This document shows positions 44,032-48,928 of a DNA stretch of 64,000 nucleotides, piece after piece; the stretch's first letter is position 1, and each line of letters opens with the position of its first letter. The stretch lies in assembly GCA_946497035.1 (NCBI GenBank), contig CAMMIW010000001.1, positions 1 through 64,000 of the forward strand. The letters run 5' to 3'. The notes beneath the pieces were generated by a model. That model saw only the letters and a list, made by a program, of their open reading frames with translations. It was not told where the DNA came from and searched no databases. The DNA comes from an uncultured Eubacteriaceae bacterium (lineage in GTDB: Bacteria > Bacillota > Clostridia > Lachnospirales > CAG-274). A program made the position numbers and the translations under genes.

Positions 44032-44775
44032 CTACTCCTTAAAATGTGCTAGTTCATAAGGATAATAATCACACTCTTTCAATATTTCATCATCTAAGTT
44101 ATACATCTTTACTAATGCTGCCGCCTCTATACACCAATATCCAACATAATAATCTCTTAAATGGGCATTTTTATCTAATATACATTGATCATCTTGCATA
44201 TTTAACCATTGTTTCGTTATATATTTTTTTAATAGCTTTGTTGCTTCTTGTTTTTTCCCCTCTTTTGCTAAATCTACTATTTCCATTACTGTTTTTTCTC
44301 TCTTTTTAAATAATATCTCTTTTGCTTTTATTTCTTCTATTTCGTCTATGTAATTTATTAAACTGTCTATATATCTATCTTTTAGCCCTTTTTCTCTTAT
44401 TAGCTTTATAAATTTTTCTACATACTCTGTTTTTATATTTAATATTATTATAAATATTAATGCTACTCTTATATCTTCAAAGCAACCTGTATCCCATTTA
44501 AAATTTTTATATAAACCATATAATAATCCTTCTCCTATTGGCTTTAGCTCTTTTATATCTATTCCTAAAGAATAGCCTGAATAAAATACTTTAAATCCTG
44601 ATAAAAATATTCCATAATAATATCCAGACAATGCATCTTCTATTGCATCATAAGGGTACTTATCCTTTAATTCTTCAATTTCTTTTTTTATTGTCTCAAA
44701 CCTTGTTTTATAACTGTTTAAATAAAACTTATAATTTTCCTCTAAATATTCTCTATCTTTTATTTTATCTCTCAT
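44032..44775 (-). CDS. PoNi-type immunity protein (DUF1910/DUF1911-like)
   Basis: 247 aa, helical and soluble. The N-terminal part (REYLEENYKFYLNSYKTRF) and the SGYYYGIFLSGFKVFYSGY block, the paired DDQCILDKNAHLRDYYVGYWC segment and the EAAALVKMY stretch near the end are those of the PoNi family, which protects against PoNe DNase toxins. It lies 21 bases after the toxin gene and has its own AAAGGAG site. No signal peptide, so it acts in the cytoplasm, consistent with binding a DNase there. Confidence 0.8.
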   Translation of the reverse strand: MRDKIKDREYLEENYKFYLNSYKTRFETIKKEIEELKDKYPYDAIEDALSGYYYGIFLSGFKVFYSGYSLGIDIKELKPIGEGLLYGLYKNFKWDTGCFEDIRVALIFIIILNIKTEYVEKFIKLIREKGLKDRYIDSLINYIDEIEEIKAKEILFKKREKTVMEIVDLAKEGKKQEATKLLKKYITKQWLNMQDDQCILDKNAHLRDYYVGYWCIEAAALVKMYNLDDEILKECDYYPYELAHFKE

Positions 44776-44796
44776 ATGTTTTCTCCTTTTATCTTA

Positions 44797-46515
44797 TTAT
44801 TTTAATATTTGTTCTATATCTATTTTACTTAATTCTCTTAATGTTTCACCATTTCTGCCTATTTCAAAATATCTTACATTGCCTGTTTGATCTATTAAAG
44901 ATACTAATTTTAGTACATTTACTGTACTTGTATTTCCGTTAAGTTTATAGTTTCCTTTATCTTGATCTAAAAGTTTTATTATTTCATCTGATTTTTCTTT
45001 TCCTAAAGCCTTTTCTAAGTTCTTTTCAATCCATTTATCATCCATTTGAATTTTCCATTCATCTTGGGTGCTTTTACTTTTATTTTTTGTTAAAGGTGCT
45101 TCATTCAGTGGCTTTTTATTTTCAGCTTGAGTTTTGAATTTACTTTCTACAATAACTATTTCTGGAGGTGGAGTGTTATTTTTAAATATCAAGTCTATTC
45201 CTTGATGGGTAGAGTCATTTATAGTTTTTAATTTTACGTTATCTAACATTATATTTTCTAAGTCGCCCATTTCATACATTTCTAACTCTGTTAAAAATTC
45301 TCCATAGTTTCCTTTTTGTATTCTTGTAGCTTTTTTAGGGTCAAAATCTTTTATTTGAGCATTTATTTCTTTTTTTCTTGAACCATTAGGTATTATTTTG
45401 CTTATGTTTCCAGGCTCAACTTCTTCTATAACTATATTAACCCCTCTACCTTTACCTTTATTTGGCAACATATCTGTTGCTCTAGATATATCTGCCCCCT
45501 TTCCTACCAACTTATTCATATCGCTAGTTTTATCTACAATAGATACCCCTTTTAAAGCCCCTTTGCTACCTCCAGTTGGTATAGATGTAGCTATATCAAA
45601 TATTAATTTTGAGCTAGCTCTAAATTTTTCTTCTATTGTAGCATTTTCCCAAAATTCTTTAGCATAATTATTTATAGCTACAATATTTTCATCAAAATTA
45701 AATAAAAAATTTCCTAAATCTTCTATAACACCTTTTGGATTTGTAATTGTTGAATATACACCCTCTATACTTTCTCCAACACTTTCAATAATACCTCCTG
45801 TAACTGCACCTGCATTTGTTAAAAATCCACTATCTTCTTTATCTACCTCTAAATTAAATAAACCTGCTGTAAATTTTGATATTATTTTTATATCTTTATC
45901 ATATAGATTTTTAGCGTTATTTTTAAGATTTTTCTTAGATACTTCTATATCTTTTTTAATATCATCTTTTATTTTTTCTAAAGATACGCTTTCAATATTT
46001 CTTTTAGAATTTTCAAAGCTTTTAGACATATTTTCTTCTAATATTTGATCTAGTGTTTTTTTATTAGGTACGTTGTTTTTTATGCTATATTGTCTTTTAA
46101 AACTTTCAATAGTTTTTTCAAAATAATTGTTTCCACCATTTGTAGTAATGCCCTTTTTATATTTATCTCCATAAATAGTATTATACCATTGTTTATAAAA
46201 AGATACTATATGTTTATTAGAAGTTTCTTCTGTGTCCTTATTAAATTTATTATTTTTTATATTTTTATCAATAGTGTTGTTATAACCATTTTTAGCATTT
46301 ATAGTGTTTGGTATAAGCCCAAATAAAGTATCTTCAACCGACTTGTTATTTGTGTTTTTTACATTTTTAACATCAATTTTTTTAGGTACAATAGTATTTA
46401 TATTTATTTTATGTCTTTTATTATTTAAGTTTTTTTCTTTTTTATTATAACCAACTTTTAATGCACTAGGTACAGACCTTGTACTATTTTTTATTACACC
46501 ACCTTTAGAAAACAA
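44797..46515 (-). CDS. Polymorphic toxin with C-terminal PoNe-type DNase domain
   Basis: 572 aa from a TTG with GAGGAG 9 bases upstream. Residues 1-150 are Asn/Lys-rich and unclassified. About 150-290 is helical (long Lys/Glu helices then GFLTNAGAVTGGIIESVGES, a glycine-rich hydrophobic patch). About 290-380 resembles a pretoxin segment (IATSIPTGGSKGALKG). The C-terminal ~175 residues carry a PD-(D/E)xK core: NYGEFLTELE (Glu ~406), QGIDLIF (Asp ~441) and VIVESKFK (Glu ~457, Lys ~459), matching PoNe DNases. No LXG, WXG100, PAAR or signal peptide is visible, so the export route is unclear. It is flanked by a DcrB/Eag-like gene and an immunity gene. Confidence 0.8.
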   Translation of the reverse strand: MFSKGGVIKNSTRSVPSALKVGYNKKEKNLNNKRHKININTIVPKKIDVKNVKNTNNKSVEDTLFGLIPNTINAKNGYNNTIDKNIKNNKFNKDTEETSNKHIVSFYKQWYNTIYGDKYKKGITTNGGNNYFEKTIESFKRQYSIKNNVPNKKTLDQILEENMSKSFENSKRNIESVSLEKIKDDIKKDIEVSKKNLKNNAKNLYDKDIKIISKFTAGLFNLEVDKEDSGFLTNAGAVTGGIIESVGESIEGVYSTITNPKGVIEDLGNFLFNFDENIVAINNYAKEFWENATIEEKFRASSKLIFDIATSIPTGGSKGALKGVSIVDKTSDMNKLVGKGADISRATDMLPNKGKGRGVNIVIEEVEPGNISKIIPNGSRKKEINAQIKDFDPKKATRIQKGNYGEFLTELEMYEMGDLENIMLDNVKLKTINDSTHQGIDLIFKNNTPPPEIVIVESKFKTQAENKKPLNEAPLTKNKSKSTQDEWKIQMDDKWIEKNLEKALGKEKSDEIIKLLDQDKGNYKLNGNTSTVNVLKLVSLIDQTGNVRYFEIGRNGETLRELSKIDIEQILK

Positions 46516-46540
46516 TAAATAAATCTCCTCTCACATATAA

Positions 46541-47059
46541 TTAAATATCTTCTTTAATAGTTAATATAATATCATTTAAAATAGCTCTCCATTCTTTCTT
46601 CTGAAATACATCACAATTAAAAGATACTATTAATAACCCTATTTTAATTGGTACAAAATAAATTTTATTAAATATATATCCATCTAATACAGGGATTGTA
46701 AATGAAAATGTTCCTATTTTCTTTTCTTCTGTTTGTAAAATTTCTATATCCTCCATCTTACTAGAAGGATACATTCTTGAAAATTGTTTTAAAATTATAC
46801 CTCTTATCTCTTCTATATCCTCATTTAAAATATTTCCTTCTTCTAAATTAAAATTAAAGTTTATAGTTGTATCTTCACTTGTATATACATAATCTGGGTG
46901 AATATATAATGAATATTTTTTATGTAATAAATCCTCTTCCATTATATTAAAACTTTTGGGCAAGATTATTTTTATTTTACCATCATATAGCTCCTTTTCT
47001 TCTAATAGTAGCTTTTCATATCTCGCTATTATATATCCTCTTTTTATATCATTTTCCAC
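46541..47059 (-). CDS. DcrB/DUF1795 (Eag-like) protein preceding the PoNe toxin
   Basis: 172 aa from GTG 47059, but the frame continues upstream with protein-like sequence (ELINIGYQENLIRDLIKLRE) to about 47200. AAGGAG at 47146-47141 is followed 9 bases later by an in-frame ATA (47131), giving 196 aa. Alternatively one base added to the T6 run at 47191-47196 would open it to a GTG at 47211. The core (KIKIILPKSFNIMEE, a P-D-hydrophobic strand, GTFSFTIPVLDGYIFNKIYF, GLLIVSFNC, EWRAILNDIILTIKE) has the DcrB/Mog1/PsbP-like pattern shared by Eag chaperones of type VI effectors. It lies 25 bases before the toxin gene, so a chaperone or loading role is inferred. Confidence 0.65.
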   Translation of the reverse strand: MENDIKRGYIIARYEKLLLEEKELYDGKIKIILPKSFNIMEEDLLHKKYSLYIHPDYVYTSEDTTINFNFNLEEGNILNEDIEEIRGIILKQFSRMYPSSKMEDIEILQTEEKKIGTFSFTIPVLDGYIFNKIYFVPIKIGLLIVSFNCDVFQKKEWRAILNDIILTIKEDI

Positions 47060-47302
47060 ATTAAAATAATTTATTTTCTCTTCTTCTCTTAATTTTATTA
47101 AATCTCTTATTAAGTTTTCTTGATAACCTATATTAATAAGCTCCTTATAAAATATAATTATTTCTACTAGGTTATTGTAGTATATTAAAATTTTTTGTAA
47201 TTTTTATTCACAATGAATTCTAACTTATTTTGTATTATCTTTCAATATAACAAGGATAAAATGTCAATTTTAAATGACAAAATGTAATTTTTTAGTATAA
47301 AT

Positions 47303-47342
47303 AAAAGGCTTAATTAAAATTCAAAATTTAATTAAACCTTTT
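47303..47342 (-). terminator. Terminator of sipL
   Basis: 16-base arms (47303-47318 with 47327-47342), one G-U pair on the minus-strand RNA, then a T-rich tract. Confidence 0.75.
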
Positions 47343-47362
47343 ATAATATAAAATATAAATTT

Positions 47363-48928
47363 TTAACAAACTTTTTTAAGTATTAATAACTTTTGCCCTG
47401 GATATATTAAATCTGGATTTTCAATTTCATTAAGCTCTACTATATCATCTACTGTTGTGTTAAATTTTTTAGCTAAATCCCAAAGTGTATCACCAGGTTG
47501 TACTACATAAATAATCATACTAGCAATACTATTTAAAAAGCTTTCATCTAGCTCTTCAAAAATAACATCTGTAATAAAAGAAAGCTGCTTATCTTTAGTA
47601 ACACAAGTGTCAAAATTTACCGCACATCTAATTTCAACATCTTTATCAGACATCATATTAACACCAATATGCTCAAGATAAGAGCTAATATCAACTTTAG
47701 CAATTTCAGAGTTAGCCCCTTTAGCATCTATAGCTTGGCTATAAGGTATAATAGTATTAAAACAATACATAGGATAATCATCATTATTAGTAATATAAAG
47801 TATTTTACAATCTATAATACCCTCTGCTAATATTTTATCTTCTAATATTTCTATATTATCTAATATAGGCTTGCCAGAAACTTTTAAAACTTGTAAAATA
47901 GGCGGACATTCTTCATCTAATTTTACAATTTCTTTAATAGATGCTTGGTTTTTATTTTTACATATTAACATAGGATAGCTTTGCATATTCTTTTCAATAT
48001 TAATTTTTTTATCTAAAGCATAAGCATCTTCTAAAATATTCATTTCATCTTCATAGCTAACTTTAATATTACAACCTACATAAATATCTATACCTATAAG
48101 TCTTGGTTCTACGTCTACATCTTCTAATATTTGAACGTTTTTTTCTTGTATATCAAGATAAACATCACCTATCATATTATCTGTAGCACCTTCAACCTCT
48201 ATCACACCATTAAAAGGTATATCTTGTTCAAAATATGTAATAATACTATCTTCTTCATCACTTTTATAAAGAATACAAGCTCTAACATCTCCAGATATGC
48301 TTATTTTTTCATTTTGGGCTCTCACATCTTTATTAGCAATGTTAAAAGTAATATCTAAAATTTCTTTTATATTAGGCCTACCGCTAGATATTTCTATATC
48401 ATCTTTTATATTAAAACGGTCAAATTTGCTACAAGCTATTTTATTTACATTTATATTAGTAACCTTCATTTGTTTTTCATCAAGGCCATCTATTGTAGAT
48501 ACTGCCTCTATATTTTCTTTAGCCAAAACCTCTGATGCTACCTCTAAAATAGCTCTAAAGCTTACTTTTCTATCATTTATAAGCTTATAATCTAAATTTG
48601 TAATATTGCAGGCGGTAAAAACAGTCATCGTTTTATCTATACCTTCCATATTTATAAAATCGTTAATAGGATATGTAGATTGCATATTATATATAGGCTT
48701 ATTTTCTCCTTTTGCTACAAATAAAACATTTATATCTAAATTTCCTTTAAAAGTAATTCTATCGTTAACTATGTCTTTACTATCTATATATGCAGTTGCG
48801 TTAGCCTCTAAAACCATGTCTATATCTGGTTTAGTATCTGGAACAATAATATCGCCTTCTACTAAAACTTGGCTTGTTTCTTTCCCTATTTTTTTATCTA
48901 TCGTTATATCTTTCTTCAAAATTTCCAT
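47363..48928 (-). CDS. sipL: Spore morphogenesis protein SipL (SPOCS/DUF3794 plus LysM)
   Basis: 521 aa. Repeated DUF3794/SPOCS modules (first one about 10-150: ILKKDITIDKKIG, GDIIVPDTKPDIDMVLE; later copies near 165-300 and 315-455) and a C-terminal LysM (about 470-517, VVQPGDTLWDLAKKFNTT) reproduce SipL of Clostridioides difficile, which binds the coat ATPase SpoIVA through its LysM and anchors the coat. It acts in the mother cell around the forespore. The GTAGGAGGT Shine-Dalgarno is buried in a 15-bp stem that also looks like the terminator of the upstream gene. Confidence 0.9.
   Translation of the reverse strand: MEILKKDITIDKKIGKETSQVLVEGDIIVPDTKPDIDMVLEANATAYIDSKDIVNDRITFKGNLDINVLFVAKGENKPIYNMQSTYPINDFINMEGIDKTMTVFTACNITNLDYKLINDRKVSFRAILEVASEVLAKENIEAVSTIDGLDEKQMKVTNINVNKIACSKFDRFNIKDDIEISSGRPNIKEILDITFNIANKDVRAQNEKISISGDVRACILYKSDEEDSIITYFEQDIPFNGVIEVEGATDNMIGDVYLDIQEKNVQILEDVDVEPRLIGIDIYVGCNIKVSYEDEMNILEDAYALDKKINIEKNMQSYPMLICKNKNQASIKEIVKLDEECPPILQVLKVSGKPILDNIEILEDKILAEGIIDCKILYITNNDDYPMYCFNTIIPYSQAIDAKGANSEIAKVDISSYLEHIGVNMMSDKDVEIRCAVNFDTCVTKDKQLSFITDVIFEELDESFLNSIASMIIYVVQPGDTLWDLAKKFNTTVDDIVELNEIENPDLIYPGQKLLILKKVC

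What the first reader, a model, noticed from the sequence alone, without database searches (positions are those of the whole stretch)
44032..47211. Three-gene toxin module: DcrB/Eag-like protein, PoNe-type DNase, PoNi-type immunity
The 572-aa protein ends in a PD-(D/E)xK core (Glu ~406, Asp ~441, ExK ~457-459) matching PoNe DNases, and its downstream neighbour looks like PoNi immunity. The upstream gene has the DcrB/DUF1795 fold pattern shared by Eag chaperones, which load type VI effectors with N-terminal helices. A Gram-positive spore-former with such a loader, but no PAAR, LXG or WXG100 signature on the toxin, suggests an unconventional export route such as a contractile or extracellular injection system, or a novel delivery domain in residues 1-290.
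Basis: partly seen in the sequence, partly recalled or inferred. Interest (0 to 1): 0.75.

Follow-up and report, generated by a model that had tools for sequence, protein, structure and literature searches.

The report
Stranded DNase toxin of injection machine
A spore-forming bacterium carries a DNA-cutting toxin, its antidote and a likely loading helper that appear to have been ammunition for a type-VI-like molecular syringe, a syringe that some relatives keep but that this strain seems to have lost.

Summary
The three genes are real. The toxin's C-terminus is homologous to a Vibrio effector chain, VP14465 (9waq_B, E=9.6e-14), and has PD-(D/E)xK residues E406, D441, E457xK459. Its neighbour is a PoNi immunity protein (PF08929, 73.6 bits, cut-off 25). 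The upstream protein's family profile finds DcrB first among solved structures (E=0.0015): weak but specific support for DcrB/Eag. Relatives show the likely export route. At the same site a sister genome has DUF4280 (PAAR-like), VgrG, VgrG-like, DcrB-like, pentapeptide, PoNe toxin and PoNi; the window keeps the sipL end, DcrB-like gene, toxin end and PoNi (74-88% DNA identity) but not the spike genes. DcrB-like genes co-occur with the ~725-aa candidate-sheath gene of a cluster with TssD/Hcp-like proteins: 15 of 295 genomes have both, 1.2 expected. Elsewhere the window's genome keeps VgrG and DUF4280, but tube and Hsp70-like genes were not found and the candidate sheath gene is a stub. So the module is probably stranded ammunition, perhaps useful as immunity. 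Its promoter resembles agrD promoters. Contraction and agr control are inference.

The parts
44032..44775 (-). PoNi-type immunity protein (247 aa)
   Evidence: PF08929 PoNi_C 73.6 bits, E=2.7e-20; PDB 9waq_A, named DUF1911 domain-containing protein, E=8.8e-4. PoNi_N is below cut-off here (12.5 against 22.4) but above it in the sister fragment (31 bits).
44797..46515 (-). 572-aa polymorphic toxin with a C-terminal PoNe DNase domain; intact frame, TTG start
   Evidence: ORF; 65% identity to the sister toxin over residues 356-572; profile match to VP14465, 9waq_B, E=9.6e-14.
44900..45330 (-). PoNe domain (about residues 396-539) with E406, D441, E457xK459
   Evidence: Stretch aligned to 9waq_B (limits approximate); residue positions.
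46541..47137 (-). DcrB/Eag-like accessory protein (about 198 aa if started at ATT 47137 or 196 aa at ATA 47131; 172 aa if at GTG 47059)
   Evidence: 71% identity to L008:4900-5514; family profile finds DcrB in the PDB; relative's ATG codons read ATT/ATA here.
47194..47304 (-). agrD-type promoter region, 111 bp, 77% identical to the region upstream of agrD/agrB beside a machine cluster of G215
   Evidence: blastn E=1e-16 against the held loci, 80.6 bits; best of 50 Markov-shuffled queries 50.0 bits.
47252..47285 (-). Direct repeat ACATTTTGTCA-N10-ACATTTTATCC (21-bp period), candidate LytTR/AgrA site
   Evidence: Pattern with up to 3 mismatches: once in each of 3 of 8 genus genomes (0, 0 and 3 mismatches; reversed-pattern control 0); the other two lie upstream of agrD.
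47363..48928 (-). sipL (SPOCS + LysM): chromosomal landmark shared with the sister locus
   Evidence: Pfam SipL 4.7e-46, LysM 9.7e-18; window 47341-47509 is 88% identical to L008:64-232.

Best explanation
The cassette is an antibacterial effector-immunity module that evolved as ammunition of a type-VI-like contractile injection system of Clostridia. Shown: the toxin ends in a PoNe-family DNase domain, the next gene is its PoNi-type immunity protein, and the first gene belongs to a family that usually sits beside vgrG in relatives and co-occurs with a marker gene of a T6SS-like cluster. Inferred: the DcrB/Eag-like protein loads the toxin on a VgrG/DUF4280 spike, the machine drives it into a neighbouring cell, PoNe cuts DNA there, and PoNi protects the producer and its kin. 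Also inferred: an agr-type promoter couples the module to cell density. In the window's strain tube and Hsp70-like genes were not found, the candidate sheath gene is a stub and the spike genes are absent from this site, so today the module probably serves mainly as immunity or as a stranded relic.
For: PoNe homology and catalytic residues; PoNi. The sister genome has DUF4280, VgrG, an unknown gene, VgrG-like, DcrB-like (71%), pentapeptide, PoNe toxin and the start of PoNi; DNA alignment shows the same site, with sipL end (88%), DcrB-like gene (79%) and toxin end plus PoNi (74%) shared and the ~4.65 kb with the spike genes missing in the window. DcrB-like and candidate-sheath genes co-occur: 15 genomes of 295 with both against 1.2 expected; without the genus, 12 of 287 against 0.8; at genus level 7 both, 3 and 3 alone, 116 neither. 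A VgrG-like ORF lies within about 1.5 kb of 24 of 30 DcrB loci, 8 of these by construction. Tubes: 10 of 14 match Pfam TssD at a permissive E limit, best 2.4e-4; the only PDB hit of their profile is Hcp1, E=0.033. Toxin swapping: residues 1-331 of the sister toxin are 53% identical to those of a toxin ending in Endonuclea_NS_2. Own-genome decay: sheath-like stub of residues 3-85 behind broken frames resembling the VWA gene, no tube and no Hsp70-like match. Promoter shared with agrD.
Against: The ~725-aa candidate sheath has no credible homology to Pfam, PDB or phage sheaths. The tube match is weak: the printed TssD scores, 14.9-18.1 bits, are under the cut-off of 25.8, and 4 of 14 tubes do not match. 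The window toxin has no PAAR hit, no prePAAR motif and no strong transmembrane segment, unlike classical Eag clients; the toxins' first ~355 residues differ. DcrB-like genes occur without a detected candidate sheath in 5 genomes, and the reverse in 3 (one search scored at most 3 candidates per genome). Against agr control: G251 has a machine cluster but no match to the agr proteins, G215 has several further agr loci, its second machine copy lacks the repeat, and the own genome shows no agrB. The own genome is a draft in 35 contigs and one machine gene is cut by a contig end, so absence rests on a 99.7% complete assembly, not a closed one.
Confidence: 0.7

Rival explanations
1. The module is still fired in this strain: its remaining spike parts (two VgrG-like proteins, DUF4280, three DcrB-like proteins) dock on the tail of the resident contractile prophage-like element or on missed machine genes.
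For: VgrG x2, DUF4280 and DcrB x3 are open frames in the own genome; a phage-type sheath gene occurs in 8 of 8 genus genomes, in the own genome inside a contractile prophage-like block read from translations.
Against: The element appears to bring tail genes of its own, and the candidate-sheath and tube genes of the T6SS-like cluster are separate from it. The own genome lacks detectable tube genes. The window's accessory gene has no standard start codon at the homologous position.
Confidence: 0.15
2. The toxin is exported by a T7SS-like or Sec route, as some other Gram-positive PoNe toxins may be, and the DcrB-like neighbour is incidental.
For: PoNe domains occur with LXG, WXG100 or signal peptides (PMC6688995, passages).
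Against: No LXG or WXG100 family hit in the toxin; no EssC over cut-off in 8 of 8 genus genomes; the DcrB-like gene is beside the PoNe toxin here and one gene away in the sister, where VgrG-like genes precede it.
Confidence: 0.07
3. The pair is kept only as an orphan immunity locus or is drifting to decay, with no toxin use at all. This overlaps with the stranding part of the best explanation.
For: Machine stub, spike genes missing from the site, unusual start codon of the accessory gene, no agrB match in the own genome.
Against: Toxin and PoNi frames are intact and the promoter repeat is preserved.
Confidence: 0.35

Closest known systems
PoNe/PoNi effector-immunity pairs (V12_14465/V12_14460 of Vibrio T6SS1; Bacillus cereus BC3021/BC3020)
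   Same: C-terminal PoNe domain with PD-(D/E)xK residues followed by a DUF1911 immunity gene (PMC6688995 passages). That the PDB chain named VP14465 is this same effector is inferred from its number and its DUF1911 partner chain.
   Different: The window toxin has no PAAR, DUF4280, LXG or WXG100 family hit (FIX not searched for by name), has an unmatched N-terminus, and follows a DcrB-like gene. PoNe fused to DUF4280 is already known.
Eag (DUF1795/DcrB) chaperones of T6SS
   Same: Family profile finds DcrB in the PDB; encoded beside the PoNe toxin here, beside an Rhs piece in the second own module, and mostly near VgrG-like ORFs in relatives.
   Different: No Pfam DcrB match over cut-off; clients without prePAAR; window toxin without a strong transmembrane segment.
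DUF4280 (PAAR_H2) plus Phage_GPD modules of Firmicutes
   Same: The sister module has both, as described in PMC8651086 (passages) and anticipated for DUF4280 in PMC5349215 (whole text).
   Different: The authors of PMC8651086 found no T6SS or eCIS genes nearby and proposed an unknown phage-like system; here a candidate machine gene co-occurs with the DcrB-like family and one G215 contig holds both.
Type VI secretion system
   Same: TssD/Hcp-like tubes (weak), VgrG, PAAR-like tip, Eag-like adaptor, Rhs toxins, FHA, PP2C and a kinase.
   Different: Candidate sheath without detectable homology; no TssJLM or ClpV noticed in the clusters read (no dedicated search); Hsp70-like (weak) and DnaJ proteins present; presumed monoderm host.

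Membership tests
PoNe DNase toxin | Homology to a characterised PoNe domain | tested here: met
   9waq_B VP14465, E=9.6e-14, only hit; identity of this chain with the PoNe effector of PMC6688995 inferred from its name
PoNe DNase toxin | PD-(D/E)xK core residues | tested here: met
   E406, D441, E457xK459, inside the stretch aligned to VP14465
PoNe DNase toxin | Adjacent DUF1911 immunity gene | tested here: met
   PF08929 in the next gene
PoNe DNase toxin | DNA cleavage | not testable with these tools
   Needs an assay
PoNi immunity protein | DUF1911/PoNi_C over the Pfam cut-off | tested here: met
   73.6 against 25 bits
PoNi immunity protein | DUF1910/PoNi_N (often present) | tested here: inconclusive
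   12.5 against 22.4 bits here; sister fragment 31 bits
Eag/DcrB chaperone | DcrB/PsbP fold | tested here: inconclusive
   Profile of 23 relatives: DcrB 0.0015 and 0.0021 as best PDB hits; the narrower 11-row profile found none; AlphaFold model pLDDT 43, not usable
Eag/DcrB chaperone | Pfam DcrB (PF08786) over cut-off | tested here: not met
Eag/DcrB chaperone | Client with prePAAR motif and N-terminal transmembrane segments | tested here: not met
   No AARxxDxxxH in 4 clients; best 19-residue hydropathy 0.82 in the window toxin, 1.53 in the sister toxin
Eag/DcrB chaperone | Gene beside effector and vgrG | tested here: inconclusive
   Beside the toxin but no vgrG in the window; VgrG-like ORF near 24 of 30 relative loci, 8 by construction
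T6SS (cluster in relatives) | Hcp/TssD tube | tested here: inconclusive
   10 of 14 members hit PF17642 at a permissive limit, best 2.4e-4, printed scores under cut-off; PDB Hcp1 E=0.033
T6SS (cluster in relatives) | TssB/TssC sheath | tested here: not met
   No credible Pfam, PDB or phage-sheath similarity of the ~725-aa protein
T6SS (cluster in relatives) | VgrG and PAAR(-like) tip | tested here: met
   Phage_GPD 3.3e-8 and DUF4280 1e-21, both over cut-off; TIGR01646 VgrG 1.4e-6, below its cut-off
T6SS (cluster in relatives) | TssJLM membrane complex and ClpV | not tested
   No dedicated search
T6SS (window's own genome) | Complete tube and sheath set | tested here: not met
   No tube match, candidate-sheath stub only; draft assembly
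T7SS effector | LXG/WXG100 N-terminus and EssC in the genome | tested here: not met
eCIS | Phage-type sheath with eCIS gene set | tested here: inconclusive
   The one phage-type sheath match in the own genome lies in a prophage-like block with terminase-, portal- and capsid-like ORFs read from translations; no dedicated eCIS search

The most novel reading that the evidence does not exclude
Relatives of this bacterium possess a monoderm type VI system that my searches did not find described: Hcp-like tubes, a sheath too divergent to recognise, VgrG/DUF4280 spikes, DcrB-type loaders, Hsp70/DnaJ-like proteins in place of ClpV, FHA/PP2C/kinase control and, in some species, agr quorum sensing. The window shows one of its PoNe payloads left behind after the machine was lost, still wired to an agrD-type promoter. 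This would be the 'unknown phage-like translocation system' proposed for Gram-positive DUF4280 proteins.
Probability: 0.4. Interest if true: 0.85.

Novelty: new variant of a known kind. Interest (0 to 1): 0.6.

Why it matters
PoNe/PoNi pairs are known. What is uncommon here is the link from such a pair in a spore-forming clostridium, through a DcrB-type loader, to VgrG/DUF4280 spikes and a conserved cluster with Hcp-like tubes. A published survey saw the Gram-positive spikes but no machine. A candidate gene set makes the question of a Gram-positive type VI system directly testable, and the agr-type promoter suggests one way it could be switched on.

Tried and rejected
AlphaFold on two-sequence alignments (only window and L008 sequences were eligible) gave unusable models: DcrB-like pLDDT 43, PoNe pLDDT 32. 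Foldseek with the first found nothing at E<=0.001; Salmonella DcrB stood at rank 9, E=0.24, which I do not count. Single-protein Pfam, PHROGs and NCBIfam scans do not recognise the toxin or the accessory protein. The 11-row DcrB profile found no PDB chain; the wider one did. The first tube profile's only PDB hit was a ribosomal protein at E=0.61; the wider one's was Hcp1. The candidate sheath against PDB, Pfam and phage-sheath profiles: nothing credible; the small E-values to designed repeat proteins are sums of weak repeat hits. TIGR03928 matches are far below cut-off. No Rfam RNA over gathering score and no tRNA in the window. Phage records: one weak PoNe-like match. A loose scan for the promoter repeat gave noise-level hits besides the window and the G215 agr promoter.

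Mended on review: two comparisons inside scripts (window cassette against L008, promoter against L035 alone) had silently failed because the named files did not exist. The probability of the novel case was lowered from 0.45 to 0.4 because G251, with a machine cluster, has no agr match.

Counts and dropped rows: one search lists 22 of 295 genomes; four with E from 4.7e-4 to 9.3e-3 (G058, G155, G164, G184) were dropped, leaving 18, one of them the own genome with its stub. All 20 DcrB genomes were used. First looks scored at most 4, 3 and 10 candidates per genome, so misses are possible. One search used the 30 loci issued of 38 matched places; 8 of these loci hold a protein, or a copy of one, used to build its VgrG model; DUF4280-like ORFs were near only 4 of 30.
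Full report
Observation. The toxin (46515-44797, TTG, 572 aa) and the immunity gene (44775-44032) are intact frames. Alignment with its closest relative (71% identity) continues upstream to 47131-47137. There the relative has ATG codons and the window ATT and ATA, behind AAGGAG. Either a rare start is used or expression is impaired.

Toxin and immunity. The C-terminal 228 residues, aligned with one relative, find one PDB chain: VP14465 (9waq_B, E=9.6e-14). I take it as the Vibrio PoNe effector V12_14465 of PMC6688995 from its number and its DUF1911 partner chain; this is inference. E406, D441 and E457xK459 are present. The neighbour is PoNi by Pfam (PF08929, 73.6 bits) and finds 9waq_A, named a DUF1911 protein (8.8e-4). 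PoNe/PoNi pairs are established DNase-immunity pairs, associated with T5SS, T6SS and T7SS, with a tested Bacillus cereus pair (PMC6688995, passages read). No activity was tested here.

Accessory protein. No Pfam family recognises it, and a narrow profile found no PDB chain. A profile of 23 relatives (alignment A8) finds in the PDB, as its three best hits, DcrB (13cz, 0.0015), Salmonella DcrB (6e8a, 0.0021) and a photosynthetic NDH lumenal subunit (9grx, 0.011; PsbP-like by recall). Eag chaperones serve effectors with prePAAR and N-terminal transmembrane segments (PMC7773334, passages). The four clients checked here have no prePAAR motif, and the window toxin has no strong hydrophobic segment. 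It may work like an Eag protein; membership is not shown.

What relatives show. A close toxin relative was found in one other genome, of the same genus (G272; L008, an uncultured Clostridia bacterium). Behind a LysM-ending gene like the window's sipL it has: DUF4280, a VgrG, an unknown gene, a VgrG-like gene, the DcrB-like gene, a pentapeptide protein, the PoNe toxin and the start of PoNi at the contig end. DNA alignment shows that this is the same site: the sipL end (window 47509-47341, 88%), the DcrB-like gene (47153-46547, 79%) and the toxin end with PoNi (45379-44437, 74%, up to the contig end) are shared. Where the sister has about 4.65 kb with the spike genes, the window has 187 bases. 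The two toxins are 65% identical from residue 356 on and unrelated before it. The sister toxin's first 331 residues are instead 53% identical to a toxin of G251 that ends in an Endonuclea_NS_2 domain. This is the swapping expected of polymorphic toxins. Other members of the genus carry VgrG-Rhs fusions and Rhs-type proteins.

A candidate machine. G215 and G251 (same genus) and G292 (another family) have a cluster with two ~140-aa proteins, a ~725-aa protein, VWA, DnaJ, FHA-like and PP2C proteins; an Hsp70-like protein (weak similarity) was seen in the first two, a Ser/Thr kinase in the third. Ten of 14 of the ~140-aa proteins match Pfam TssD at a permissive limit, best 2.4e-4; the printed scores are under its cut-off. 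Their profile's only PDB hit is Hcp1, E=0.033. The ~725-aa protein has no recognisable homology; calling it the sheath is inference from size and its place beside the tube genes. Of 295 genomes of the order, 18 have it (four weak matches dropped) and 20 have the DcrB-like family; 15 have both, 1.2 expected (Fisher 2e-18; genus level 1e-7). DcrB without it: 5 genomes; it without DcrB: 3. These P values ignore kinship beyond the genus collapse. A VgrG-like ORF lies near 24 of 30 DcrB loci, 8 of them by construction of the model.

The window's own genome (2.01 Mb, 35 contigs, 99.7% complete). Present: DUF4280, two VgrG-like genes, three DcrB-like genes, and two machine genes as isolated frames plus a third cut by a contig end. 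Not found: tubes and the Hsp70-like gene. Of the ~725-aa gene only residues 3-85 were found, behind broken frames that resemble the VWA gene. The contig continues into other genes, so this end is not an assembly edge. I conclude that the module is probably stranded. A missed machine in an unassembled gap is not excluded.

Regulation. A 111-bp stretch upstream of the first gene (47304-47194) is 77% identical to the region before agrD/agrB beside a G215 machine cluster (E=1e-16, 80.6 bits; 50 shuffled queries gave at most 50.0 bits). It holds a direct repeat of 21-bp period. The repeat pattern occurs in 3 of 8 genus genomes, once each: upstream of agrD in G215 and G075, and here. The agr genes beside it encode AgrB and a LytTR regulator by Pfam; AgrD and AgrC were read from the sequence. 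Against a general agr link: G251 has a machine cluster but no match to these agr proteins, G215 has further agr loci elsewhere, and its second machine copy, also beside agr genes, lacks the repeat. The own genome has LytTR/AgrC-like genes but no agrB match; the 47-residue agrD is too short for its absence to be safe. So an agr-type promoter is shown by sequence; control by quorum sensing is inferred.

Comparison with print. PMC5349215 (whole text) raised a Gram-positive phage-like system from DUF4280. PMC8651086 (passages) found Firmicutes DUF4280 beside Phage_GPD genes but no T6SS or eCIS genes, and proposed an unknown system. PMC6688995 (passages) already notes PoNe fused to DUF4280. Searches (listings) showed no title or abstract start that describes the cluster found here; PMC12210884 (passages) holds no mention of Firmicutes, Bacillota or Clostridia. 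PMC3482391 (passages) lists firmicutes in its T6SS row. The library lacks preprints and most subscription papers, so novelty in print is provisional.

Verdict. The window holds a new member of a known toxin-immunity kind. The system it came from is, at least, a strongly diverged T6SS-like variant in Clostridia.

Noticed in passing
L029:11919-18920 and L030:316-6092 (G000:C3): Contractile prophage-like block (sheath, tube, baseplate, capsid-, portal- and terminase-like ORFs, read from translations); one or two phage-type sheath genes in each of 8 of 8 genus genomes, so perhaps a domesticated PBSX-like element.
   Followed up: partly
L031:12990-19997 and L038:1509-3117 (G000:C13): Second module of the own genome: DcrB-like gene, a 327-aa Rhs N-terminal piece, a separate 1504-aa Rhs repeat protein, a 152-aa gene and DUF4280; the Rhs protein looks split in two frames.
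   Followed up: partly
L106:9839-16659 (G000:C10): Third module of the own genome: VgrG-like, DcrB-like, pentapeptide-like, an 86-aa leftover resembling the sister toxin's middle region, a SUKH immunity gene and a VgrG.
   Followed up: partly
L034:2352-6740 and L036:2-4762: Large proteins that begin with a VgrG-like region and continue into Rhs repeats (VgrG-Rhs fusions) in G251 and G215.
   Followed up: no
L063:10323-12953: 876-aa protein with weak DnaK/MamK similarity (E about 0.05) in the machine cluster, with a DnaJ-domain gene in the same cluster: a possible substitute for ClpV.
   Followed up: no
L107:10377-11768 and L108:5998-6690 (G000:C14, C16): Machine genes kept as isolated intact frames among unrelated genes in the window's genome.
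   Followed up: partly
L035:9754-12622; L065:9269-12153: agr genes (AgrB by Pfam; AgrC and AgrA beside it) directly beside both machine copies of G215; G215 has further agr loci elsewhere.
   Followed up: partly
L008:733-1026: 97-aa Phage_GPD-like fragment (E=4.7e-4, below cut-off) in front of the sister module, perhaps a remnant of an earlier module at this site.
   Followed up: no
window:39630-40498: Two overlapping short ORFs, the first with a GGDEF-like region and cut short: possibly a broken diguanylate cyclase gene (motif recalled, no family search).
   Followed up: no
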